A stretch of 18,325 nucleotides of DNA, taken from the NCBI GenBank assembly GCA_028818995.1, contig JAPPMR010000407.1:1-18325 (forward strand), read 5' to 3'. Below, piece after piece: positions 3,664-17,460 of the stretch. Every line of letters begins with the position of its first letter. Positions within the stretch are counted from its first letter, which is position 1. The notes beneath the pieces are model-generated. The model made no database searches. It saw only the letters and a list, made by a program, of their open reading frames with translations, and was not told where the DNA came from. The position numbers were made by a program, and so were the translations under genes. The DNA is from Candidatus Poribacteria bacterium (lineage in GTDB: Bacteria; Poribacteria; WGA-4E; WGA-3G).

Positions 3664-3708
3664 TAGTATTAACTAATACCATTTCTAAATGATTATGTGG
3701 CATATTTC

Positions 3709-3854
3709 GTAGGTCGGGTAGAGCGAAGCGAAACCCGACAAATCATGCGGAATGCCAAAATTGCATTCCGCCAAGCGCTTTTAGCGTTGATTTGGACACG
3801 TAAGATTAGATAGGGTTTCCATGTCGGGTTTCGCTGACGCTTTACCCGACCTAC
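3709..3854. repeat. Family B palindromic element, long copy (146 bp)
   Basis: Left arm GTAGGTCGGGTAGAGCGAAG (from 3709, continuing to CCCGAC at 3739) is answered by an inverted right arm from GTCGGGTTTCGCTG (3823) to CCCGACCTAC (3854). Each arm can itself fold (GTCGGGT with ACCCGAC). Inside is a second, perfect 9-bp stem: GCGGAATGC (3747-3755) and GCATTCCGC (3763-3771), with a 7-base loop. It lies between bamA and ompH and carries no ORF. It resembles a mobile palindromic unit. A shorter relative lies at 12161-12233. Confidence 0.8.
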
Positions 3855-4550: not shown

Positions 4551-4689
4551 TATGGTAGAGATTAGAATTAACGCTACATTCCTGAACTGTAGGAGGGAAC
4601 TCCGATTCCCGACTGCTCCTAAGTTTCTGTCGCGATTCGGAGATCGCTCCTACAGAGGAAATGTAGAATTATTTCTATAGTCCACTATA
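4551..4689. repeat. Family A MITE-like element, copy 1 (139 bp)
   Basis: Outer ends TATGGTAGAGATTAGAATTA (4551) and CTATAGTCCACTATA (to 4689) form imperfect inverted repeats. The inner arms are CTGTAGGAGGGAACTCCGAT (from 4587, running on to TCCCGAC) and GTCGCGATTCGGAGATCGCT (from 4629, running on to CCTACAG at 4655). The two inner arms differ in a fixed way: GGGAACTCCGATTCCC on one side, GCGATCTCCGAATCGC on the other, and each folds on itself. It separates ompH from lpxD, and the element end is 11 bases from the upstream in-frame ATG of lpxD. No coding potential was seen. Confidence 0.8.
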
Positions 4690-4733
4690 GTTTAAAACCT
4701 ATGCCCGAATGTTACACTGTAACTCACCCGAAT

Positions 4734-4739
4734 GAGGAG
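4734..4739 (+). promoter_or_regulatory. Ribosome binding site that decides the lpxD start
   Basis: GAGGAG lies 9 bases before the ATG at 4749. The earlier in-frame ATG at 4701 has no comparable site and follows the repeat element directly; the ATG at 4743 is only 3 bases away from GAGGAG, which is too close. Confidence 0.65.
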
Positions 4740-4748
4740 TATATGCGT

Positions 4749-5795
4749 ATGAAACTAAAGGATATTTGTGATCACTTAGGCGGTGAACTCTCTGGTGATG
4801 GTGAGATAGAAATTACAGGTGTTTCTGGCATTAAAGAGGCGGTACCAAGTCAGATAACTTTTGTAGCTAATTCAAAATATCTGGGTGCTATTGCGACAAC
4901 ACAAGCCTCTGCGATCATAATCGGGCGTGGAGTTTCTGGAAACGGAAAACCGACTATCTGTGTTGATAATCCATATTGGGCATTCGTCAAAGTTTTGGAA
5001 TTATTCGCTTGGGATACAGCACAACAACCTCAATCGGGGATTCATGCAACTGCCATTATAGGTGAGAACGTCAAATTAGGAGAAGGTGTCACGATTCAAG
5101 CTCACAGCGTTATAGGTGACAATGTTGAGATAGGTAATGACACTGTTATTATGCCGCTTGTATATATCGGATCTGACAGTAAAATTGGATGCGACGGCTT
5201 AATCTATTCGCATGTAAGTATTCGTGAAAACGTGACCATTGGAGATCGTGTAATTATTCACTGTGGTGCAGTGGTAGGCAGCGATGGCTTTGGCTTCACG
5301 CCCGATCCTACCAACCATAGCCCGTATAAAATCCCACAAATCGGCACAGTCGTTGTTGAAGACGATGTTGAAATTGGTGCTAATACCACAATTGATAGGG
5401 CAACGCTCTCTGAAACACTTATCAAAAGCGGAACGAAACTTGATAATCTCGTTCAAATTGCACACAACGTTGTTGTTGGTAAAGATTGTTGCTTAGCGGC
5501 ACAATCTGGAATTGCTGGAAGTGCCATTCTGGGTGATCGGGTAAACATTGCTGGACAATCTGGCGTGGTTGGACACCTAACCCTTGGCGAAAATAGTGTG
5601 CTTTACGCTAAATCCGCAGTGACAAAAGATATGCCACCCGGTAGTCAACTTTCTGGATTTCCTGCCAGACCACATAAACAAGAGTTGCGACTTCAAGCCT
5701 CCATCCGAAAATTGCCAGAACTGCTACAAGATTACACCCAACTCCAGAAACGGGTTGAGGAATTAGAAGCGAAACTACAAAAACTTGCAGACTAA
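4749..5795 (+). CDS. lpxD: UDP-3-O-(3-hydroxyacyl)glucosamine N-acyltransferase LpxD
   Basis: Third step of lipid A synthesis: transfer of a 3-hydroxyacyl chain from acyl carrier protein to the 2-amino group of UDP-3-O-acylglucosamine, in the cytoplasm. From the ATG at 4749 the protein has 348 residues. The N-terminal uridine-binding domain (about 1-95) includes GVSGIKEA and ITFVANSKY. A left-handed parallel beta-helix of hexapeptide repeats follows (about 98-300, many I-G-D/E-N units). The catalytic histidine sits in LDNLVQIAHNVVVG and counts as residue 239 from this start, the number of the E. coli catalytic His, which supports the choice. A C-terminal helical tail (ELLQDYTQLQKRVEELEAKL) ends it. 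An in-frame ATG at 4701 would add 16 residues but lacks a ribosome binding site. The gene marks the organism as an LPS/lipid A producer. Confidence 0.95.
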   Translation: MKLKDICDHLGGELSGDGEIEITGVSGIKEAVPSQITFVANSKYLGAIATTQASAIIIGRGVSGNGKPTICVDNPYWAFVKVLELFAWDTAQQPQSGIHATAIIGENVKLGEGVTIQAHSVIGDNVEIGNDTVIMPLVYIGSDSKIGCDGLIYSHVSIRENVTIGDRVIIHCGAVVGSDGFGFTPDPTNHSPYKIPQIGTVVVEDDVEIGANTTIDRATLSETLIKSGTKLDNLVQIAHNVVVGKDCCLAAQSGIAGSAILGDRVNIAGQSGVVGHLTLGENSVLYAKSAVTKDMPPGSQLSGFPARPHKQELRLQASIRKLPELLQDYTQLQKRVEELEAKLQKLAD

Positions 5796-5839
5796 TAATT
5801 GCATATTTGTGAAACATAGGATTGATCAGGCATCAATAA

Positions 5840-6451
5840 ATGGTATTTGATAATAAACCTATATCTGAAATTACGGACGCAGATTTGACCGATCTAATTG
5901 GTAATCAAGAAGAAAATTTATGGATTGAATTCAAGAGGGAGCACTACGAAGGATACAAAAATAACCGCGAGAAGTATAGACGTGAGATATGCAAAGATGT
6001 TACGGCAATGGCTAATGCTGACTCTGAAGTTGGATACATCCTTATTGGTGTAGATGCAGATAACAATAATATTGCACAAAATTTTTTTGACATTCCTGAT
6101 GCGAAAAATAAAGCTAAAAGCATCTATGATACTTGCCTCCAACATATAAAACCACGTATTGCAAAATTAGAGGTGGAATCTCGTTCCTTGGAATGGCAAA
6201 ACCAAGAGTACAACCTAATAATCATTCATATTCCTTTTAGTGAAAATCGTCCCCACGGTTTTGATTCAAATGGGACACTTAACTTTGTAAAGCGCTATGG
6301 AGAGGTTACAAAAGAATTTGAAATGTTAGAGTTCATCCCCGAACTATTAGCACGACATCCTTTGCCAGTCATGGACGACATTAATGTAAAGTTGGATAGA
6401 ATTGAGCATCAAACAACAGATATTTTAAAGGCAATCGGAGAGAGCGAATGA
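5840..6451 (+). CDS. Schlafen AlbA_2 (divergent AAA-4 type) domain protein
   Basis: A 203-residue protein with the AlbA_2 domain (Pfam PF04326 by memory of its motifs), a nucleic-acid-binding fold found in bacterial regulators and Schlafen relatives. Visible marks are the early EFKREH (about 30-35), CKDVTAMANADSEVGYILIG (about 51-70) with the GYILIGVD strand, a central NLIIIHIPFSENRPHG strand and turn, and the closing FVKRYGEVTKEFEM (about 149-162). The last 25 residues look helical (INVKLDRIEHQTTDILKAIG). No winged-helix or ATPase domain follows, unlike many longer AlbA_2 proteins. Its stop overlaps the next start (ATGA at 6448-6451), so the two products are probably made together. I see no strong ribosome binding site before the ATG. 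Function is unknown; regulation, RNA cleavage and defence are all possible. Confidence 0.75.
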   Translation: MVFDNKPISEITDADLTDLIGNQEENLWIEFKREHYEGYKNNREKYRREICKDVTAMANADSEVGYILIGVDADNNNIAQNFFDIPDAKNKAKSIYDTCLQHIKPRIAKLEVESRSLEWQNQEYNLIIIHIPFSENRPHGFDSNGTLNFVKRYGEVTKEFEMLEFIPELLARHPLPVMDDINVKLDRIEHQTTDILKAIGESE

Positions 6452-7155
6452 ATTCACTTACGAAGAGATTTAGTTCTTTTGTCAAGGCTATATCCGACCA
6501 ACCCTATTATCGCATCTTCGCGTTACCAAACGAATCTAATGGGAAAGTTGTATCTACCGAAGAGCAATGTATACGCGATATTTTGCATAACCCACCGAAC
6601 AAACGTTGGGCAGGTTTTGGTGTTACAGGACTGTTGGAACGGGACGAGCATCAATGGGAAGAGGGTATAGAAGGGAGCAATGTAACTGGTGGTAAAATCA
6701 CCTTACTAAGAGATGGATATTTTGAAGTCCTATGTCCAATTAATATCCAGTTTCAAAGAGGGTGGTGTTCCCCTCAATTTGCAATTCCTAATTCTGTAAA
6801 ATGGTTGTACCCGTATGTAGTCATTGAGTTTCCTGTCTCATTTATGCGATTAGTTAAGGATATATACGATAAGTCTGGTATTGATTCTGGTGTAACTATA
6901 GAACAGTACTACCATAATATCACAGAGTATGCTTTGCCAGAGGGACCACCTACCTATCCTACTTTCGGTGCCTTCATTGATGAGAGAGGTGTGTACGAAG
7001 GTGCGTCCCCTATTCATTCTGTTCAACAAATTCGCAACGATTTTATCCCTGACCATGTAGCTTACGATTTAGTGGCAGATGTGTATTCCAAATTTGGATT
7101 AGGTGCTAAAGCAATTCCTGCATTTGATGAAAACAAAAGATTTATCTTAGTATAG
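6448..7155 (+). CDS. Hypothetical protein coupled to the AlbA_2 gene
   Basis: I do not recognise this 235-residue protein. It overlaps the AlbA_2 gene by 4 bases (ATGA), a sign of translational coupling, so a joint complex or pathway is likely. It has no signal peptide or membrane segment. It is rich in aromatic residues and looks like a compact alpha/beta protein: YYRIFALPNESNGK (about 20-33), a glycine-rich RWAGFGVTGLLER (about 53-65), DGYFEVLCPI, QRGWCSPQF and a PYVVIEFPVSFMRLVKDIYD strand-helix (about 121-140). The YRIFALP and KITLLRDGYFEV strands vaguely recall the region that follows AlbA_2 in single-chain proteins, so the pair could be a split version; that is speculation. Confidence 0.7.
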   Translation: MNSLTKRFSSFVKAISDQPYYRIFALPNESNGKVVSTEEQCIRDILHNPPNKRWAGFGVTGLLERDEHQWEEGIEGSNVTGGKITLLRDGYFEVLCPINIQFQRGWCSPQFAIPNSVKWLYPYVVIEFPVSFMRLVKDIYDKSGIDSGVTIEQYYHNITEYALPEGPPTYPTFGAFIDERGVYEGASPIHSVQQIRNDFIPDHVAYDLVADVYSKFGLGAKAIPAFDENKRFILV

Positions 7156-7206
7156 CCATCTGGTCCTCGCAAATTAAACTTTAAGTATTATTTGTCATGT
7201 GCGATT

Positions 7207-7343
7207 TATAGTGCACTTTGAAAATAAAGAGACACATTTTCTGTAGGAGCGATCTCCGAATCGCGACGGAACTCACTGATAGTCGGGAATCGGAGTTCCC
7301 TCCTACATCTCAAAATGTCCCGTTAATTCTAAAGTTCACTATA
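7207..7343. repeat. Family A MITE-like element, copy 2 (137 bp)
   Basis: Ends TATAGTGCACTTTGAAAATA and AAAGTTCACTATA. Inner arms are CTGTAGGAGCGATCTCCGAA (from 7241) and GTCGGGAATCGGAGTTCCCT, running on to CCTACA. Orientation is opposite to copy 1: the GCGATC-type arm comes first. It fills much of the 358-base gap between the hypothetical gene and the methyltransferase; in the rest of that gap I see only AT-rich sequence and one short hairpin. The TATAAT created at the right border (7340-7345) looks like a -10 box but has no -35 partner. Confidence 0.85.
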
Positions 7344-7484
7344 ATAGTGTTTAGCACAGGGAATCAGTTATTAATATAACTCTAAAAATTACCACTCATA
7401 ATAGATTCTATTCCAACTCTCCCAATTTTACCACACAAAAAACGCACCAATTTATCTACCCACTTTAATACGACAAACGGAGGG

Positions 7485-7500
7485 ACAGGTGAAAGCCTGT
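7485..7500 (+). other. Short hairpin just before the methyltransferase start
   Basis: ACAGG-TGAAAG-CCTGT (5-bp stem, 6-base loop) is followed by TTTTAATAAGG and the TTG start at 7514. In RNA it would sit at the edge of the ribosome entry site and could modulate translation. It is too weak for a confident terminator. Confidence 0.25.
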
Positions 7501-7513
7501 TTTAATAAGGTTA

Positions 7514-8749
7514 TTGATAAACTACGATAAGTTGATTACATTCTTGGAAAAAATAGATCCGAATGCTGAAGAGGTGCTTCATTTTAAACAAGCATACCGT
7601 TCCTATTCCGAGACAGGTGTATGGCAACAGACTTATCAGGTCTTTACCTCTGGGTGGGAAAATATAGATGGTGCTATGCTGATAAAACCAGAGGATACAT
7701 TAGATGCCGATTATCGCGTTTACCTAACTGCTACAACTGAACGAAGTTTAAGGGAACTACTGCTTGCCTTTCCAAGGCAATGTGCGGGAATGTTCCACAT
7801 TGCCGAAGAATGGATAGAAGAAAGAATTGGAGACATATTGGAAGGGGACTTTGTTCATACGGATTCGAGGAAATATTTTCGCGGTATCAAACGGGGAAGT
7901 CGGACTAAAGCGGAACAACGAGTTGTTTCTAAAAGAAAAGACGAAATCGCAGCCCATATTCGTAAATTAGCATCCTTAAAAGGCAAATTTGAACATTCGC
8001 AATTCGTTATTGAAGGGGAAATGATGGTAGAACGTGCTGTCGCAGACGGACTACCAATTGAAACAATTCTCTATACTACAGACTTTGTTGCAACATCTGA
8101 TGGGAAAAAATTCATCAAACAAGTATTTGATGAGAATTTGTCTTGCTATTCGGTTAATGACGGTGTAATGGGTTCAGTCACAACAACGCGTCCCGTGCCT
8201 TCAATAGTTGCTTCAATACATCTTAACTATCCTCCCTTTTTGTCTGAATTTGGTCAACTTAATTTTCACTTTAGCCGAAACTGCATTTTGCTTATCGCTG
8301 AAAATGTTAGGAATCCTGATAATCTGGGTATGACATTACGGACTGCTGATGCAGCAGGTGTATCGGCAGTTTTACTCAGTGGTAATGGAGCAAGTCCATT
8401 TCATAAGAACTGCATACGCGCCTCGCGCGGTGCTGTTGGACGTCTGCCTATGTTCCAGACACCAAAAACAAATTTGGCGATTGAGCAACTAAAATTATCA
8501 GGATGGAGAGTAATCGGTGCTACAGCCAAAACCGAAAATGACCTCTATACTATGGAATATACCTACCCGACTGCAATTGTTGTCGGTAACGAAAATACAG
8601 GATTATCGGATGAAACGCGCGAGTGCTGCACGGACTTAGTTCGTATTCCTATGGCAGCTGGACAATCCTCCTTAAATGTTGGCGTAGCAGCGGGTGTTTT
8701 ACTTTTTGAATTAAGTAGGCAAAAACGAAGCATCATGACTTCAATTTGA
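7514..8749 (+). CDS. SpoU/TrmH-family RNA 2'-O-methyltransferase with N-terminal extension
   Basis: SAM-dependent SPOUT enzyme that methylates ribose 2'-O in rRNA or tRNA. Of 411 residues, about 155-240 is the substrate-binding domain (KFEHSQFVIEGEMMVERAVA). The SPOUT knot is at about 258-402 with motif 1 ENVRNPDNLGMTLRTADAAG (263-282), motif 2 IVVGNENTGLSDE (355-367) and motif 3 RIPMAAGQSSLNVGVAAG (377-394), including N388. Usual RlmB/TrmH members have about 230-270 residues, so about 150 extra N-terminal residues are present. That part (GWENIDGAMLIKPE, LLLAFPRQCAGMFHIAEEW) is not a known RNA-binding domain to me; it faintly resembles the first half of some GNAT acetyltransferases. The start is TTG; the reading frame is closed by TGA at 7490-7492 and no ATG or GTG lies between. 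AAGG at 7507-7510 is a poor, close ribosome binding site. Confidence 0.85.
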   Translation: MINYDKLITFLEKIDPNAEEVLHFKQAYRSYSETGVWQQTYQVFTSGWENIDGAMLIKPEDTLDADYRVYLTATTERSLRELLLAFPRQCAGMFHIAEEWIEERIGDILEGDFVHTDSRKYFRGIKRGSRTKAEQRVVSKRKDEIAAHIRKLASLKGKFEHSQFVIEGEMMVERAVADGLPIETILYTTDFVATSDGKKFIKQVFDENLSCYSVNDGVMGSVTTTRPVPSIVASIHLNYPPFLSEFGQLNFHFSRNCILLIAENVRNPDNLGMTLRTADAAGVSAVLLSGNGASPFHKNCIRASRGAVGRLPMFQTPKTNLAIEQLKLSGWRVIGATAKTENDLYTMEYTYPTAIVVGNENTGLSDETRECCTDLVRIPMAAGQSSLNVGVAAGVLLFELSRQKRSIMTSI

Positions 8750-8774
8750 CAAATTGCTCAGACGGTGGTAAAAT
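8746..8774 (+). promoter_or_regulatory. Sigma70-type promoter for grpE (and possibly dnaJ-prmA)
   Basis: TTGACA (8746-8751), a 17-base spacer and TAAAAT (8769-8774): a near-consensus housekeeping promoter. The -35 box overlaps the methyltransferase stop TGA (8747-8749). No CIRCE operator (TTAGCACTC with inverted GAGTGCTAA) is present between it and grpE, so classical HrcA control is not visible here. Confidence 0.7.
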
Positions 8775-8833
8775 TGTTTAGTTTTGGAGACACGTAAAAG
8801 AATTCACTGAGAAAGAAAAAGAGGTAATTCGTA

Positions 8834-9565
8834 ATGTCTGAAAATAATGAGGTAGTAATAGAAGTAGAAACAGAAAATATCAAAAAACCAGATTTTCTTA
8901 TTGACGAGGCTGAAGAAGAAACGGATGCGTCTGATGAAGTGGACGCGGAGGCAGAGGGACGCACAATAGAAACTGTTGAAGCAGAACTTGAGGCACTCAA
9001 AGAAGACTTAAAAAAACAACTTGAAGCAGTTGCCGAAACTGAACGTGAGCAATATGAGGAAGAACGAGAACGTTTGCTACGAACTGCTGCTGAAGCCGAA
9101 AATTCAAAAAGACGGACTGAAACCGAAGCACAGAAACAGCTTAAATTCGCTAACAAAAACATTATAGAAAGTCTGATTCCGGTGTTAGATAGTTTTGAAG
9201 CAGCGATTAAAAGTGTTGATGGAAAAATTGAATCGAGTGAGACTTCATCAGATTTCTCAAACTTCAGTGAAGGGGTGCAATTAGTTCATAAACAACTCTT
9301 GGATGTGCTAAAGATACATGGCCTCATAGCAATTGAAGCAGCGGTTGGTGCCCCGTTTGACCCAAACCAGCACGAAGCAGTTTTTGCTACTGAATCCGAA
9401 GAAGTCCCAGAAGGAAATGTAATAGAAGAATTCAGATGTGGTTACCAATTGCATGACCAAGTTCTTCGTGCCGCACAAGTTGTGGTTTCAAAGGGAAAAC
9501 CTGAGCAGCAACCTCCTACTGAAGAAAACGAAGAACAAGAAACTGAAGACATAGATAAAGATTAA
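8834..9565 (+). CDS. grpE: Nucleotide exchange factor GrpE
   Basis: Cytoplasmic co-chaperone that releases ADP from DnaK. The 243 residues have a very acidic disordered N-terminus (about 1-45), a long coiled coil (about 45-105, LRTAAEAENSKRRTETEAQK), the four-helix dimer region (IIESLIPVLDSFEAAIKS, about 110-127) and the C-terminal beta wing with the family signature FDPNQHEAVF (175-184) to VIEEFRCGYQLHDQVLRAAQ (196-215). An acidic tail ends it. GAGGT at 8821-8825 lies 8 bases before ATG. Its length, somewhat above the usual 170-220, comes from the acidic ends. It has its own promoter upstream and is followed not by dnaK but by a repeat element and dnaJ. Confidence 0.95.
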   Translation: MSENNEVVIEVETENIKKPDFLIDEAEEETDASDEVDAEAEGRTIETVEAELEALKEDLKKQLEAVAETEREQYEEERERLLRTAAEAENSKRRTETEAQKQLKFANKNIIESLIPVLDSFEAAIKSVDGKIESSETSSDFSNFSEGVQLVHKQLLDVLKIHGLIAIEAAVGAPFDPNQHEAVFATESEEVPEGNVIEEFRCGYQLHDQVLRAAQVVVSKGKPEQQPPTEENEEQETEDIDKD

Positions 9566-9573
9566 GTAAGATT

Positions 9574-9710
9574 TATAGTGAGTTAAAAAATAAGCTTACA
9601 CTTCTTCTGTAGGAGTGATCTCCGAATCACGACTTAACCTATTAGCTGTCGGGAATCGGAGTTCCCTCCTACAACTCAATAATGTAAAGTTAATTGTAAA
9701 ATTCACTATA
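9574..9710. repeat. Family A MITE-like element, copy 3 (137 bp), between grpE and dnaJ
   Basis: Ends TATAGTGAGTTAAAAAATAA and GTAAAATTCACTATA. Inner arms are CTGTAGGAGTGATCTCCGAA and GTCGGGAATCGGAGTTCCCT, the first carrying a compensated change (GTGATC with GATCAC instead of GCGATC with GATCGC). Same length and orientation as copy 2. It fills almost all of the grpE-dnaJ gap; a transcript running through would form a large cruciform-like hairpin that could lower or punctuate dnaJ expression. Confidence 0.85.
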
Positions 9711-9734
9711 ACTACAGTGTAGGTAGGAAAACAG

Positions 9735-10850
9735 ATGGTTCAAAAACGGGATTATTATGATATTCTTGATGTAGGCAGAGATGCTGATGAAGATGAAATT
9801 AAGAAGGCTTACCGAAAGTTAGCGATTAAATATCATCCAGATAAAAATCCAGATAATAAAGAAGCTGAGGAAAAGTTCAAAGAAGCCACCGAAGCTTACG
9901 ATGTGTTGCGGACACCTGAAAAGCGTCAACGTTACGATCAATTTGGGCATGCTGGACTTGAAGGCACTTCAAGCGGCTTCGATTTTGGTGTTAACCTTGA
10001 TGATATTTTCAGCGAAGTCTTCGGAGACGTTTTTGGCGGATTCGGTAGAACACAAAATAGACCTAAGCAAGGACGCAGCCTACAATATCCCCTTGAAATC
10101 TCACTTGAAGATGCGTTCAATGGCAAAGAAGTAACAATTGAAGTGCCTCGTATTGAATCTTGTCCAGAATGTAAGGGAAGCGGTGCAGAAAGAGGGACAA
10201 CTGTTGAAACTTGTCCACAGTGTTATGGAAGGGGACAGATAACTCAATCTCAAGGTTTTTTCACTATGTCCCGACCCTGTCCACGCTGCCGGGGTGAGGG
10301 AGAAATTATCCAAAATCCATGCCGAAATTGTAATGGACAAGGACGAATTAGAGTAAAACGTGAATTAAAACTGAAAATTGATAAGGGTGTTGATAACGGC
10401 ATTGAATACCGATTGCAAGGAGAAGGTGAAGCTGGAACATTGGGTGGTCCGCCTGGTAATTTACACGTTGTTATTCATATCCAACCGCATCAACAATTTA
10501 GTCGTGATGGGAACGATCTGATCACTTCCGCAAAAATATCGTTTGCACAAGCAGCACTCGGTAGCACAATCGAAATTAATAGTCTTGAAGGTCCAGAAAA
10601 ACTAAATATCCCTGCCGGTACGCAGTACGGAGATCAGTTACGTATACACGGCAAAGGCATGCCAAAGTATAGAAGCTCAAGTTTCGGAGACCTCATTGTG
10701 AAGATCGGAATTGTAACACCAAAAAATCTCAATGAACAGCAGCGAAAACTTTTAGAACAATTTGCTGAACTACAAGATGAATCCGTTGAATCTGGACAAA
10801 AAGGATTTTGGGATAAGCTTTTTCACCACGATGATGACGAGAAAAAATAA
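9735..10850 (+). CDS. dnaJ: Chaperone DnaJ (Hsp40, type I)
   Basis: Cytoplasmic co-chaperone that delivers unfolded proteins to DnaK and stimulates its ATPase. The 371-residue product has all type I parts: J domain (about 5-70) with HPD at 34-36, Gly/Phe-rich linker (about 71-108), four zinc-binding CXXCXGXG repeats (C143-C146, C160-C163, C182-C185, C196-C199), two C-terminal substrate-binding beta domains and a dimerisation tail. Length matches the family (about 370-380). AGGTAGG at 9721-9727 lies 7 bases before ATG. It is followed by prmA, the order known from many Firmicutes-type heat-shock clusters (grpE-dnaK-dnaJ-prmA), but dnaK is missing from this locus and must be elsewhere. Confidence 0.96.
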   Translation: MVQKRDYYDILDVGRDADEDEIKKAYRKLAIKYHPDKNPDNKEAEEKFKEATEAYDVLRTPEKRQRYDQFGHAGLEGTSSGFDFGVNLDDIFSEVFGDVFGGFGRTQNRPKQGRSLQYPLEISLEDAFNGKEVTIEVPRIESCPECKGSGAERGTTVETCPQCYGRGQITQSQGFFTMSRPCPRCRGEGEIIQNPCRNCNGQGRIRVKRELKLKIDKGVDNGIEYRLQGEGEAGTLGGPPGNLHVVIHIQPHQQFSRDGNDLITSAKISFAQAALGSTIEINSLEGPEKLNIPAGTQYGDQLRIHGKGMPKYRSSSFGDLIVKIGIVTPKNLNEQQRKLLEQFAELQDESVESGQKGFWDKLFHHDDDEKK

Positions 10851-10887
10851 GAATCTGGTATCTGGAAGTTAAAAAAACAGCATATTT

Positions 10888-11772
10888 ATGAATTGGGCGC
10901 GGATTACCGTAACGACTTCTGACGATGCATCTGAAGCCGTTGCAAACTACCTCTTTGAAATGGATGCTTTCGGGGTTGAGTTAAAAGATGCTGCCAATTC
11001 AACAACTTCGCTCATTGCATATTATCCACTGGACGACCGCGTAAACACAAGAGTAGAGAAACTAAAAGATTTTCTTTCTAAACTCCCAACGTGGGGTATC
11101 CAAGCACATCCTGCGAAAATTGACTTAAAACGCGTTGAATCTGAAGAGTGGACAGAAGCGTGGAAGTCATCTTTCCCACCCCAACGAATAGGAAAACGTC
11201 TGCTAATTGCCCCGACATGGCATGATATTTCCCCTGACGAGACAGATATTCTAATTCGCCTTGATCCCGGCATGGCATTTGGAACTGGTTACCATCCGAC
11301 CACACGTTTGTGCTTGGAAATGTTGGAGCAAACGATTAAGCCAGATCAACAAGTCGCTGATATCGGAACAGGTTCGGGTATACTCGCAATTGCCGCAATA
11401 AAGTTAGGTGCAAAACATGTTGATGCGATTGAACTTGACCCGACAGCAATTCCTGTGGCAGAAACAAACTTTGCAATTAATAGTGTTACGGAACAAATAA
11501 GGTTGTATCAGGGTGATGGAATTAAGGTAGTCCAAGACAAGTACCATCTAATTGTTGGGAATATTCTTACAAAGGCAATTCTTCCGATAATACCCTATTG
11601 TCCTTCGCGATTGCCCCCTGAAGGACAGATCATTTTTTCTGGAATTTTGGAATCAGAACTGGAACAGGTCCAAGAGGTATTAGAGGAGTATGGATTGCAA
11701 TGCATCCATGTGACGCGCGAAGCAGAAGAGGAAGTAATGTGGACGGCGGTCTTAGCGAGATTCTTTGGCTAA
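10888..11772 (+). CDS. prmA: Ribosomal protein L11 methyltransferase PrmA
   Basis: SAM-dependent enzyme that trimethylates ribosomal protein L11. The 294 residues contain the small N-terminal substrate-recognition domain (about 1-65, MNWARITVTTSDDASEAVAN), a linker helix, the LDPGMAFGTGYHPTT motif (125-139), the Rossmann SAM loop DIGTGSGILAIAA (158-170), the acidic end of strand two (AIELDP, about 180-185) and the catalytic-site segment VGNILTKAI (about 223-231, N225). Length is typical. It stands 37 bases after dnaJ; the ribosome binding site is weak (TCTGGAAG is far from the ATG). Its last 21 bases overlap the convergent cytochrome gene. Confidence 0.93.
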   Translation: MNWARITVTTSDDASEAVANYLFEMDAFGVELKDAANSTTSLIAYYPLDDRVNTRVEKLKDFLSKLPTWGIQAHPAKIDLKRVESEEWTEAWKSSFPPQRIGKRLLIAPTWHDISPDETDILIRLDPGMAFGTGYHPTTRLCLEMLEQTIKPDQQVADIGTGSGILAIAAIKLGAKHVDAIELDPTAIPVAETNFAINSVTEQIRLYQGDGIKVVQDKYHLIVGNILTKAILPIIPYCPSRLPPEGQIIFSGILESELEQVQEVLEEYGLQCIHVTREAEEEVMWTAVLARFFG

Positions 11773-12009
11773 TCCGTGGCAGAGATTGCATCTACCAAGA
11801 TTGAGGTGAGGCATTGTCGGTGATTTTTCGTCCCCCTTCAGATGGCATTTCAGACATGCAGCATCTTCAGATGATTCCCGATGCACCTCAATGTTTGAAC
11901 GCGCTGGTGCAGCATTAAAAAAAAGAATTACCATTACGATCGCAAAAATAATACCAATAACGAAGACGATATAAAATAGCACCTTTGGATCAGCTTGTTC
12001 GGTTGGCAT
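11752..12009 (-). CDS. Small membrane-anchored protein with two CXXCH haem-binding motifs
   Basis: From the ATG at 12009 the product has 85 residues: a short N-terminus (MPTEQADPK), one strong transmembrane helix (about 10-33, VLFYIVFVIGIIFAIVMVIL), then an outward-facing tail with CLKCH and CNLCH. Both are c-type haem attachment motifs, and additional histidines lie between them (HLNL). The layout resembles very short NapC/NirT- or cytochrome c3-like di-haem electron carriers, or a c-type cytochrome subunit of a respiratory complex; no exact family is claimed. A TTG at 12048 in the same frame would add 13 residues, also without a clear ribosome binding site. It overlaps the prmA end by 21 bases, tail to tail. 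Confidence 0.7.
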   Translation of the reverse strand: MPTEQADPKVLFYIVFVIGIIFAIVMVILFFNAAPARSNIEVHRESSEDAACLKCHLKGDEKSPTMPHLNLGRCNLCHGLAKESR

Positions 12010-12160
12010 ATAAAATAAATAGACTCCGAATCTATGGTAATTACTCAACTAATAGGATACCTTAAAATCAGTTGTACTGCAAATGAAAATAGCAGGGTTA
12101 TTTAGTTTTCGGTTTTTCTGGTGTGTTTTATCACAACCGTTAATTTTTTATAGGGGTATT

Positions 12161-12233
12161 GTAGTCGGGTAGAGCGAAGCGAACTCGACACGTTTCGCCC
12201 ATGTCGGGTTTCGCTGTGCTCTACCCGACCTAC
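12161..12233. repeat. Family B palindromic element, short copy (73 bp)
   Basis: GTAGTCGGGTAGAGCGAAGC (12161) opens the left arm, which ends in CTCGAC. The right arm opens with GTCGGGTTTCGCTGTGCTCT (12203) and ends CCCGACCTAC (12233). The centre is only about 13 bases (ACGTTTCGCCCAT region). Compared with the copy at 3709 the arms agree closely while the centre is replaced and much shorter, as if arms are conserved and centres vary. Confidence 0.8.
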
Positions 12234-12250
12234 GATGTAAACTGGATAAT

Positions 12251-12398
12251 TATACCATTTCTAATTGACAGAGTTTCATTCCGATTTTGAGTTTCTTTGT
12301 AGGAGGGAACTCCGATTCCCGACTATCAGTGAGGTTCGTCGCGATTCAGAGATCGCTCCTACAGAAAATGTGTCTCTTTAATTTCAAAGTTCACGATA
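12251..12398. repeat. Family A MITE-like element, copy 4, chimeric left end
   Basis: Orientation as copy 1. In reverse complement, the first about 95 bases (from TATCGTGAACTTTGAAATTA through both inner arms) nearly equal copy 2, including the spacer between the arms (ACTCACTGATAG against CCTCACTGATAG). The left portion (12251-12290) differs from all other copies. A further outer inverted pair surrounds the element: TACCATTTCTAATT (12253-12266) and ATTTAGAATTGGTA (12412-12425). This copy may therefore have inserted into, or recombined with, another repeat. Confidence 0.7.
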
Positions 12399-12430
12399 AT
12401 GTTATATCATTATTTAGAATTGGTATTAGG

Positions 12431-13255
12431 TCATTCGAAAAAAGGGAAAAGAATTGGCAAATTCTCGGTTGTCAGTGAAGAGCCATATTCACAGGATTCA
12501 AATGCTTCAGCATATTGAATGTTAGCACCTGTTTTTTTGCCATAAAATTCAACTAACAGATCACGGTACTTTTCCGCTACACTACCAAAACGATTTCGTA
12601 AACGTTCCGCAAGCCATTCCCGTCGATCTTCTACACTATCGGGAACGACATTTAAGTTACCGCTGTTGTAAGGTAGCCATTCATAGAACTGCGATTCGTG
12701 GCAATGGAGCATATCAATTTTCTGTTCCACTACGGTGTCAATACCGACAACAACATCTGGCGAAAAAGGGATAGGCTTCATGAAACCATCGCTCAGATAG
12801 ACAATAACCGGATTTTTCTCTAAATGTGGTGTAAGCGCACAAATGTTCGGTACAGTCACCATATAGGCTGCGTCCTGCACGAGTATTGACGTATAGCGAT
12901 GGTCAGGATGGTAATCGTTGGGACGGTGCGTCATAATCAAGTCTGGACGGAATTCGCGAATAGTACGGATAATCTGATACCGATTTTCTAATGTAGGCAT
13001 CAGTTCACCATCGTGGTTGTCAAGTAGTTCGTATTCAATACCGATAATTTCGGCAGCAGCTTGTGCTTCGGCATTACGCCTTTGTGCTAAAGGACCACCG
13101 CCCATCTCATGGTGTCCTGCATCGCCGTTTGTAACGGAAACAAATTTGACATGATGTCCCTGCTGAATATATAGTGCAGCGACTCCACCAGCTTTTATGT
13201 CACAATCGTCGGGGTGCGCTCCGAAGACTAACACACGAATCTGTTTTATATCCAT
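12431..13255 (-). CDS. PIG-L (LmbE-like) family deacetylase
   Basis: Zinc-dependent N-acetyl hydrolase of the PIG-L/LmbE family, which removes acetyl groups from N-acetylglucosamine-type sugars (MshB, BshB and PIG-L are characterised members). The 274 residues show the signature GAHPDDCDIKAGG (12-24) with metal ligands H14 and D17 and catalytic D16, TNGDAGHHE (42-50) and the third ligand region HRPNDYHPDHRYTS (110-123). Length is normal for a single-domain cytosolic member; no signal peptide is seen. The substrate is not deducible: bacillithiol-type synthesis is possible but no partner glycosyltransferase lies nearby, and the family is often expanded in sugar-degrading bacteria. It is divergent from the PurS gene, with family A copy 5 between the two starts. 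Confidence 0.88.
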   Translation of the reverse strand: MDIKQIRVLVFGAHPDDCDIKAGGVAALYIQQGHHVKFVSVTNGDAGHHEMGGGPLAQRRNAEAQAAAEIIGIEYELLDNHDGELMPTLENRYQIIRTIREFRPDLIMTHRPNDYHPDHRYTSILVQDAAYMVTVPNICALTPHLEKNPVIVYLSDGFMKPIPFSPDVVVGIDTVVEQKIDMLHCHESQFYEWLPYNSGNLNVVPDSVEDRREWLAERLRNRFGSVAEKYRDLLVEFYGKKTGANIQYAEAFESCEYGSSLTTENLPILFPFFE

Positions 13256-13283
13256 TTCGGGTTATCCGTAAAATGTTGATTTT

Positions 13284-13384
13284 TTTCGTGGATTAAGAAA
13301 ATAAGTTTACACGTCTCTTGTAGGAGCGATCTCCGAATCGCGACGAACCACTCAGGTGTAAAGTTAATTGTAAAATCCACTGTA
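13284..13384. repeat. Family A MITE-like element, copy 5, internally deleted (101 bp)
   Basis: Left end GTGGATTAAGAAAATAAG with TTTACAC (13288-13312) pairs imperfectly with the right end GTGTAAAGTTAATTGTAAAA through CACTGTA (13356-13384). Only one inner arm remains (TGTAGGAGCGATCTCCGAAT, from 13320, running on to CGCGAC); the GTCGGGAATCGG arm is gone, which accounts for the 36 bases missing compared with copies 2 and 3. The right end is 2 bases from the PurS ATG, so promoter and leader of that gene lie in or behind the element. Confidence 0.75.
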
Positions 13385-15759: not shown

Positions 15760-17460
15760 TTATCTCCGTATCCGTGAGTGTTTCACCTTTGATTCAGATA
15801 ACAATTTACTGATGTGCCTTGCAGGAATAGCTGCAGCATTCATGAGTTGATCACTCCGTGCCACAATTCCGAGTAAGATGCCTTGTTTGTTAAGCACTGG
15901 TCCGCCACTGTTGCCACCGAACACATCGGATTGGATATGCAGGAAATCTCCGTGGTTGTTCAGAAATTCACCGAGTGTCCAACGCCACAACTCCTGTTTC
16001 ACAGGGTTGCCGAGTATGTAAACCAATTCGCCTGCTTTTGTTGCGGGTGGTGTGAGTTTCCAGTCAATTTCGCGGGCGGTTTCGGGTAAACCGTCAAGTC
16101 TGATGATGGCTAAATCTGTTTTCTCATTTCTTGCGATGACATGTCCTTTGGTGTAATAGCCGAGTCGTTTTAGCACGCCGCCGTTTGTTAAGTAGAAATT
16201 CCGATCTTTGATGAGTTCGCCTTTTTCGTCTGATGCGGGAAAATATACGTCTATTGTGTTCTGTTTGCCTGTGACGTGTGCGTTGGTGACAGCGAGTTTG
16301 GATTTTTTATCAAGTAGTACACCGCTGCCTTCGCTTATGCCTGGGTTGACTATCCACATGACTGCGCGGATGGCGTTGGTGTAGATTTGGTTTGCGGTGG
16401 GTTTTGGTGGTTTAGGAAGATCTAAATATTTAGAAAGGTTTATCGCTCCCGTGTTTATCGACTGTTCGGAGGAGACTCGCCATAGGCGAATTGTGTTATC
16501 CATACTGCCACTTGCGAGTGTCTTACCATCAGGACTGAAGGCAACAGTTCTTACATCAGACGTATGTCCGGTGAGTGTAATTTTCTGTTTACTGGTTTGT
16601 ACATCCCAGAGGCGCACAGTGAAATCTCCACTACCACTTGCGAGTGTCTTACCATCAGGACTGAAAACTATACTTTGAACCGAACCTGTGTGCCCCTCAA
16701 GAGTGGTTTTGTGTTTACCTGTTGCTACATCCCAGAAACGCACTGTATTATCGCCGAATCCACCACCACTCGCGAGAATCAGACCGTCTGGGATGAAACT
16801 TACACTGGTTACTTCAGCACTGTGCCCTTTCAGGGTTTTCAGAAGTTTCCCTGTGGACACATTCCATAAACGGACTGTGTCATCCCAACCACCACTTGCG
16901 AGTGTCTTACCATCAGGACTAAAACTTACGCTTTCAATACTTTTTACATGTCCATTAAGGGATTTCTTGAATACTCCAGTGGCAGCATCCCAAAGCCAGA
17001 TGGTATTGTCGGCAGTAGGCCAAGGACCACCGCTTGCACTTGCTAACGTTCTACTATCAGGACTGAAACCGACACTATAGACAACATCTGTATGTCCTTT
17101 TAGTATCTTTTTTTGTATGCCGGACTGTAGATCCCAAAGCCGGACGGTTTGATCGTGGCTAGCACTTACGAGTGTTCTACCGTCAGGACTGAAACCGACA
17201 CTCCATACAGTCCAGGTGTGTCCTGTTAGAATTTTTATGGGCATGCCGGATTGTGATTCCCAAAGTCTGATAGTGTTGTCTGCACTCCCACTTGCAAGCA
17301 TTCTGCCATCAGGACTAAAACTGACACTATAGACATGGTAGGTATGCCCTGTGAGAGTTTTATAGTGAACGTAATCTTGCGCGAAACCTTCTATAGAGAA
17401 TAGGATTGCAACAAGCAGTAGCACTAGAACAAAAAAAGAGATTTGTTTCATTGACTTCAT
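15760..17460 (-). CDS. Secreted WD40 beta-propeller fused to trypsin-like serine protease
   Basis: The 566-residue product begins with a signal peptide (about 1-28, MKSMKQISFFVLVLLLVAIL then SIEGFAQ), so it acts in the periplasm or outside. Seven WD40 repeats follow (about 34-331), each with GH, an S-x-x-FSPDG turn and a final W (L-W-D, L-W-N, F-W-D or similar): enough for one closed seven-blade propeller. Blades 3 and 5 carry short insertions (GGPWPTA, GGFG). A proline-containing linker (about 340-355) leads to a trypsin-like domain (about 362-555) with an intact triad: H395 in VTNAHV, D449 in KTDLAIIRL and S518 in GGNSGGPVL. Its closest look is to HtrA-like/S1 proteases without a PDZ domain. 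It starts inside the stop of the upstream gene (ATGA). An alternative start is M4 (17451). Confidence 0.9.
   Translation of the reverse strand: MKSMKQISFFVLVLLLVAILFSIEGFAQDYVHYKTLTGHTYHVYSVSFSPDGRMLASGSADNTIRLWESQSGMPIKILTGHTWTVWSVGFSPDGRTLVSASHDQTVRLWDLQSGIQKKILKGHTDVVYSVGFSPDSRTLASASGGPWPTADNTIWLWDAATGVFKKSLNGHVKSIESVSFSPDGKTLASGGWDDTVRLWNVSTGKLLKTLKGHSAEVTSVSFIPDGLILASGGGFGDNTVRFWDVATGKHKTTLEGHTGSVQSIVFSPDGKTLASGSGDFTVRLWDVQTSKQKITLTGHTSDVRTVAFSPDGKTLASGSMDNTIRLWRVSSEQSINTGAINLSKYLDLPKPPKPTANQIYTNAIRAVMWIVNPGISEGSGVLLDKKSKLAVTNAHVTGKQNTIDVYFPASDEKGELIKDRNFYLTNGGVLKRLGYYTKGHVIARNEKTDLAIIRLDGLPETAREIDWKLTPPATKAGELVYILGNPVKQELWRWTLGEFLNNHGDFLHIQSDVFGGNSGGPVLNKQGILLGIVARSDQLMNAAAIPARHISKLLSESKVKHSRIRR

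What the first reader, a model, noticed from the sequence alone, without database searches (positions are those of the whole stretch)
4551..13384. Family A: five copies of a nested-palindrome, MITE-like element in under 9 kb
Copies at 4551-4689, 7207-7343, 9574-9710, 12251-12398 and 13284-13384 share outer inverted ends (consensus TATAGTGNACTTTNNAATTAA and its complement), with TGTAGGAG inner arms in all. Copies 2 and 3 have exactly the same length (137 bases). The two inner arms are never identical: one has GCGATCTCCGAATCGC, the other GGGAACTCCGATTCCC, and each can fold alone. This four-part palindrome occurs in both orientations, always between genes. Copy 3 keeps its pairing through a compensated change (GTGATC/GATCAC), which points to selection on the folded form rather than pure decay. 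No transposase is in the window, so a helper enzyme would act in trans (a transposase or a Y1-type REP nuclease).
Basis: partly seen in the sequence, partly recalled or inferred. Interest (0 to 1): 0.7.

Follow-up and report, generated by a model that had tools for sequence, protein, structure and literature searches.

The report
Nested mobile repeats with swappable cores
Five short repeats between genes of a sponge-associated bacterium are two kinds of mobile DNA nested in each other, a small transposon shell around REP hairpins, and relatives show the same hairpin pair inside several different shells.

Summary
The five repeats are real and far above chance. The window is Candidatus Poribacteria; its own assembly is not held. 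Each repeat has two layers. The outer arms (TATAGTG...CACTATA) match the ends of 904-915 bp IS630-family transposons in relatives. Five syntenic relatives lack copies 1 and 3, nearly all keeping TA at the point. The inner arms are two REPs, GTAGGAGCGATCTCCGAATCGCGAC and GTAGGAGGGAACTCCGATTCCCGAC, which flank RAYT (Y1) transposase genes in related genera. In sampled relatives the same REP pair sits in seven shell types (two seen once), hybrid shells occur, and the outer shell can hold other hairpins. Window copy 4 is a hybrid; the same locus in a 97%-similar relative has the same outer shell with a different core. In the window's genus no RAYT with these REPs was found, yet 17 of 18 genomes carry the exact pair (173 copies). 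In five RAYT-bearing genomes 25 of 26 sampled places show single or tandem REPs without such shells. REP dimers inside long palindromes are known from Anabaena variabilis, so this is a new variant of a known kind. I found no report of the core exchange or the missing RAYT.

The parts
4551..4689 (-). Copy 1: shell-A element with REP doublet, inverted orientation
   Evidence: absent in L031-L035, exact TA empty site in L031
4589..4613 (+). REP-b of copy 1
   Evidence: 0 mismatches
4629..4653 (-). REP-a of copy 1
   Evidence: 0 mismatches
7207..7343 (+). Copy 2: shell-A element with REP doublet
   Evidence: no clean empty site could be read
7243..7267 (+). REP-a of copy 2
   Evidence: 0 mismatches
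7282..7306 (-). REP-b of copy 2
   Evidence: 0 mismatches
9574..9710 (+). Copy 3: shell-A element with REP doublet, between grpE and dnaJ
   Evidence: absent in L031-L035; neighbours by Pfam
9609..9633 (+). REP-a of copy 3, with a compensated stem change
   Evidence: 2 mismatches
9648..9672 (-). REP-b of copy 3
   Evidence: 0 mismatches
12251..12427 (.). Copy 4: shell-B element holding the REP-b/REP-a doublet and a shell-A arm (hybrid)
   Evidence: same outer shell with another core in L031; same hybrid at another locus of G001 C129
12299..12323 (+). REP-b of copy 4
   Evidence: 0 mismatches
12338..12362 (-). REP-a of copy 4
   Evidence: 1 mismatch
12363..12398 (-). Shell-A arm inside copy 4
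   Evidence: part of a 102-nt, 94% complementary match to copy 2 (pair I1)
13284..13384 (+). Copy 5: shell-A element with a single REP and a degenerate left end
   Evidence: absent in L031-L033, where 28-33 other bases stand
13320..13344 (+). REP-a of copy 5
   Evidence: 0 mismatches

Best explanation
Each family-A copy is a two-layer mobile element. The outer layer is a MITE shell: about 28 nt of IS630-family (DDE) transposon end on each side, inserted at TA and moved in trans by an IS630 transposase. The inner layer is a REP doublet (REPIN/BIME-like): two inverted, non-identical REPs that belong to a RAYT (Y1, IS200-like) group. The composite amplifies as one unit through its shell. Recombination or gene conversion between REP arms exchanges shells and cores, which gives hybrids such as copy 4 and probably explains one core in several shells. 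Shown by sequence: the anatomy, sites without the element, partner ends, REPs at RAYT genes, the core-by-shell matrix, a core difference in place at the copy-4 locus. Inferred: that an IS630 transposase moves the shell, that a RAYT made the first REPs, and that recombination rather than repeated RAYT insertion caused the sharing.
For: No element at copies 1 and 3 in L031-L035. L032 carries a shell-A element with another core at a TA that is empty in the window at 12050-12051. Shell-A arm profile: 108 hits of at least 10 bits against 1 in a Markov control; both ends 0.75-1.1 kb apart at 6 of 32 IS630-family loci; one IS630 end identical over 28 nt to a G001 shell arm. REP-a and REP-b within 2 mismatches at 7 of 56 RAYT rows, exact at L342 and L338. 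Of 53 inverted doublets 35 have one shell on both sides (seven types), 4 are hybrids. Spacer follows shell: 0 of 5000 permutations as strong, 21 doublets. 33 of 270 GTAG-hairpin clusters in strict TA inverted repeats against 1 of 801 control positions.
Against: 26 of 32 IS630-family loci show no pair of A-type ends at the stated distance; some are truncated by contig ends. No IS630 with exactly the ends of the window copies was found. 13 of 53 doublets have one or both flanks unassigned, and 237 of 270 GTAG-hairpin clusters do not pass the strict inverted-repeat test. Copy 5 shows no clean empty site and copy 2 none could be read. No activity was observed; the order of events at copy 4 is inferred.
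Confidence: 0.8

Rival explanations
1. REP-driven: the mobile unit is the REP doublet. A RAYT inserts it, GTAG outward, into tips of pre-existing palindromes, so the shells are only preferred targets, as one may read the Anabaena variabilis case.
For: The same doublet sits in seven shell types. One of 27 distinct copies of a G010 shell family lacks the hairpin but keeps GTAG. Targets around REPs are described in PMC3733652 section 7.
Against: TA lies at the outer ends, not at the REP ends. Doublet orientation is constant within each shell type and the spacer follows the shell. No RAYT with these REPs was found in the genus. 10 of 13 exact doublets of G003 share one spacer though no Y1 match was found there.
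Confidence: 0.12
2. An ordinary one-layer IS630 MITE whose interior happens to be palindromic; the REP likeness is convergence.
For: TA sites and IS630-type ends alone explain copies 1-3 and 5.
Against: Exact REP-a and REP-b stand on both sides of RAYT genes in other genera, and the same 50 bases occur in other shells.
Confidence: 0.03
3. Host-function element: the copies are kept as terminators or mRNA-stabilising hairpins and mobility is past.
For: 1 of 53 inverted doublets lies in ORFs of 150 aa or more, which cover 83% of bases. REP arms are better kept than shell arms. Copies 1-3 fold strongly.
Against: Sites of copies 1 and 3 are not shared by five relatives. Family-specific amplification in single genomes. 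Loss from genes by selection explains the intergenic bias as well.
Confidence: 0.05

Closest known systems
GTAG-15 dimers inside long TATA palindromes of Anabaena variabilis (PMC3733652, section 7 read in full)
   Same: A GTAG REP dimer sits inside a longer palindrome that begins with TATA.
   Different: There such palindromes without REPs were not found and the outer palindrome was not tied to an IS; here the outer arms match IS630 ends, the same core is in several shells, shells hold several cores, and hybrids occur.
REPIN/BIME with RAYT (PMC2817692, passages; PMC3116915, listing only)
   Same: Two inverted GTAG REPs, head-GA-hairpin form as in Pseudomonas and Xanthomonas REPs, RAYT genes with cognate REPs in relatives.
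   Different: In the window's genus no RAYT with these REPs was found, and the doublets lie in DDE-type shells.
IS630-derived MITEs such as Correia and RUP elements (named in PMC2817692, passages)
   Same: Short, no coding capacity, IS630-type ends, TA.
   Different: The interior is a REP doublet of another transposition system and is exchangeable.
Pneumococcal BOX elements (recalled, no call)
   Same: Modular short repeats with variable inner modules.
   Different: Not recalled to hold RAYT-type REPs; no sequence comparison was made.

Membership tests
IS630-type MITE (outer layer) | Terminal inverted repeats shared with a transposase-coding IS | tested here: met
   6 of 32 IS630-family loci have both A-type ends; one end identical over 28 nt to a G001 arm. 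Not shown for the window's exact arm sequences.
IS630-type MITE (outer layer) | TA target, sites without the element in relatives | tested here: met
   Copies 1 and 3 absent in L031-L035, exact TA in L031 for copy 1; TA at the point in nine of ten comparisons, L035 at copy 3 reads TTAAAAC
IS630-type MITE (outer layer) | Many copies, no coding capacity | tested here: met
   52 match rows in G001, some pieces of one element; 101-148 nt copies in the window
IS630-type MITE (outer layer) | Movement by the IS630 transposase | not testable with these tools
   needs an assay
REPIN/BIME (inner layer) | GTAG head and hairpin, inverted pair | tested here: met
   Copies 1-4 have the pair, copy 5 one REP
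REPIN/BIME (inner layer) | Cognate REPs beside RAYT genes somewhere in the lineage | tested here: met
   7 of 56 RAYT rows, all outside the window's genus
REPIN/BIME (inner layer) | Cognate RAYT in the same genome | tested here: not met
   None among 14 rows (12 distinct) of the genus; own assembly not held, MAGs incomplete
Known Rfam RNA family | Match at gathering score | tested here: not met
   0 matches in the window

The most novel reading that the evidence does not exclude
REP doublets that lost their own RAYT survive and spread as the exchangeable core of many DDE-type MITE shells. REP-to-REP recombination acts as a cassette joint that makes new shell combinations, so two unrelated transposition systems share one modular pool of elements.
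Probability: 0.5. Interest if true: 0.72.

Novelty: new variant of a known kind. Interest (0 to 1): 0.58.

Why it matters
REPs are usually taken to depend on their RAYT. Here a REP doublet seems to persist and multiply without it by riding in shells that another transposase family recognises. That is a natural test of what keeps REPs conserved (RAYT, host function or gene conversion), and a route by which new MITE families arise by recombination at a shared hairpin core.

Tried and rejected
Own-genome search: the assembly is not held, so G001 and other unnamed relatives were used. Rfam: no match. A strict end search gave 6 of 30 IS630 loci with A-like ends on my reading; the profile search gave 6 of 32, not the same six (L134 and L145 dropped out, L131 and L155 came in). 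The first GTAG-hairpin scan near Y1 genes was too strict and missed cognate REPs; looser scans followed. In one search the tolerance of 4 mismatches lets REP-a match REP-b, so its 'a2b2' labels are not copy numbers. The 77-bp shell of G010 was considered as a pre-insertion site; one of 27 distinct copies cannot be told from a deletion.

The RAYT tree does not give the REP-a/b RAYTs as one clade: five (all genus g2) form a starred clade, L123 pairs with G008's L344 inside the next larger starred clade, L122 lies elsewhere, and the bootstrap had not settled. Two duplicate rows were dropped before the tree. Shell motifs for and subfamily labels for the permutation test were set by me from the clusters; the test used 21 convergent doublets labelled A1-A4, E and F and left the rest out, so it is not blind. 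In one search one side of D6 stayed unassigned although one search puts both its flanks with shell G; the count was left as called. One search used doublets found with up to 3 mismatches per REP (62 of 98 copies have none, one has three), and dropped arms my pattern could not place (66 and 55 of 78 pairs used). One search looked at the first listed 30 places of five genomes, not a random sample; five of the six from G081 are one array, leaving 26 distinct places.

Literature: searches listed no report of REP cores shared between MITE shells or of such elements in Poribacteria; one search returned mostly papers on animals called mites. The library holds open-licence PMC papers only. Papers: PMC3733652 opening, passages and section 7; PMC2817692, PMC6006769, PMC8049555 and PMC10969869 passages only; the rest listings. 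Shell names A-H are mine. That IS630 prefers TA and the Correia, RUP and BOX comparisons beyond the cited passage are recalled.
Full report
WHAT IS THERE. Of ten window ORFs given to Pfam, nine match: OmpH, LpxD, Schlafen/AlbA_2, SpoU methylase, GrpE, DnaJ, PrmA, PIG-L and PurS; the ORF at 6448-7152 does not. The window's GrpE is 96% identical to that of a Candidatus Poribacteria MAG (L031). The five copies of family A are at the stated places and outside these ORFs. REP-a (GTAGGAGCGATCTCCGAATCGCGAC) occurs in all five, REP-b (GTAGGAGGGAACTCCGATTCCCGAC) in four. Copies 1-3 fold far better than 200 shuffles, copies 4 and 5 only weakly so.

OUTER LAYER. Five syntenic relatives (L031-L035) have no element at the sites of copies 1 and 3. 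L031 gives an exact empty site for copy 1 (AGGTT-TA-G). The other comparisons keep TA at the point with a base more or less beside it, except L035 at copy 3, which reads TTAAAAC. The reverse also occurs: L032 has a shell-A element with a different interior at a TA that is empty in the window at 12050-12051. Copy 5 is absent in L031-L033, but 28-33 other bases stand there; copy 2 could not be compared cleanly. A profile of 29 shell-A arms gives 108 hits of at least 10 bits against 1 in a Markov control, and 39 paired elements against 0 at the 8-bit cut. The profile marks both ends, 0.75-1.1 kb apart, of 6 of 32 IS630-family (PF13358) loci. One IS630 end in G004 (L133) is identical over 28 nt to a shell-A arm of G001. 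G001 gave 52 match rows to copy 2, some of them pieces of one element, and 42 of 59 genomes gave at least one match.

INNER LAYER. GTAG-headed hairpins flank many Y1 transposase genes in these genomes, each with its own hairpin sequence. REP-a and REP-b flank RAYT genes in other genera: L342 has exact REP-a on both sides, L338 exact REP-b on both sides; L123, L339, L340, L341 and L122 have copies or close variants. The three RAYT proteins tested carry Y1_Tnp. So the two unlike inner arms are most simply the REP types of one RAYT group. Paired, unlike REPs of one RAYT are tabulated in PMC2817692 (passages).

SHELL AND CORE ARE SEPARATE MODULES. In 1.58 Mb of G001 plus 0.4 Mb of G010 there are 153 REP-a/b copies: 53 inverted a-b doublets (36 with GTAG outward, 17 inward), 9 tandem pairs and 29 singles. 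Of the 53, 35 have the same shell on both sides: A 13, C 10, F 4, D 3, E 3, G 1, H 1. One more is D on both sides with a B motif on one. Four are hybrids (A/D, A/F, A-B/B, B/G), 10 have one flank unassigned and 3 both. In these matched doublets orientation is constant within a shell type, and the spacer follows the shell. Of 34 paired A-type shells at the 9-bit cut, 9 hold no REP-a/b; one of those 9 has no hairpin. G010 has a 119-bp family (40 scored matches, 92-100% identity) and a 103-bp family with other GTAG hairpins inside A-type ends. In general 33 of 270 GTAG-hairpin clusters lie in strict TA inverted repeats against 1 of 801 shifted control positions. 1 of 53 inverted doublets and 0 of 29 A-shell pairs fall in ORFs of 150 aa or more, which cover 83% of bases.

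COPY 4 IS A HYBRID. Its left end and 12404-12427 are the two ends of shell B. Between them lie REP-b, REP-a and a shell-A arm ending at 12398. L031 holds shell B at the same locus with the core GTAGGAGCGACCTCCTGGTCGCGAC... and no A arm, with flanks 97-98% identical. The same hybrid occurs in G001 (C129, about 90,100) with other flanks. The simplest reading is an A element inserted into, or recombined with, a B element through their REPs, then movement of the product and conversion in place. This order is inferred.

ORPHAN STATE. The exact doublet (50 fixed bases) occurs in 17 of 18 genomes of the genus, 173 times, against 0 for the reversed pattern; G010 has none. Among 56 RAYT rows, 7 have REP-a/b flanks (2 mismatches or fewer, within 420 bases) and none of the 14 rows of the window's genus does. 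The nearest RAYT there, L344 in G008, has diverged REPs. G003 (94% complete) has 13 exact doublets, 10 with one spacer, but no Y1 or RAYT match. In five RAYT-bearing genomes of genus g2, 25 of 26 distinct places show single or tandem REPs without A arms or a strict TA inverted repeat; one (L399, G035) is a shell-A element. Gaps in MAGs could mimic loss, and the window's own assembly could not be searched.

CONSERVATION. Across 13 A/A elements the REP arms are 98% and 96% identical on average and the 28-nt shell arms 70% and 77%. Possible causes: gene conversion among many copies, recent loss of the RAYT, recognition by another RAYT such as L112, or a host function. The data do not decide.

KNOWN OR NEW. 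PMC3733652 (section 7 read in full; opening and passages) reports GTAG-15 dimers inside long TATA palindromes in Anabaena variabilis and found no such palindromes without REPs. REP dimers nested in MITE-like palindromes are therefore a known kind. In the searches and the passages I saw no report of one core shared by several shells, of hybrids, of IS630 partner ends for such elements, or of REP doublets kept without their RAYT.

VERDICT. Confidence in the anatomy is high, in the exchange mechanism moderate.

Noticed in passing
G001 C118:245164, C129:13552, C34:158993, C49:135536: A third hairpin (around GCATTCAGCG) stands at the GTA/GGAG end of a REP in four doublets: a further level of nesting.
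   Followed up: no
G010 families, L278-L337: Shell ends of close copies differ by two-base swaps such as AA to CC and TT to GG; cause unknown.
   Followed up: no
window 3675-3740 and 12202-12233: A second REP class (GTAGGTCGGGTAGAGCGAAGCGAAACCCGACA), once 20 bases from a shell-B-like end.
   Followed up: partly
window 5796-7390: L031 lacks this stretch (two ORFs, one Schlafen/AlbA_2, and copy 2), while L032, L033 and L035 align to much of it.
   Followed up: partly
window 9574-9710: Copy 3 fills nearly the whole gap between grpE and dnaJ, so it may affect the operon.
   Followed up: no
L375 (G035, genus g2): A shell-A element 91% identical to copy 2 in a genome of another genus that also has a RAYT with these REPs.
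   Followed up: partly
window 15760-17460 (-): 566-aa ORF with about 126-base internal DNA repeats that look like WD40 repeats and a trypsin-like end; named by eye only.
   Followed up: no
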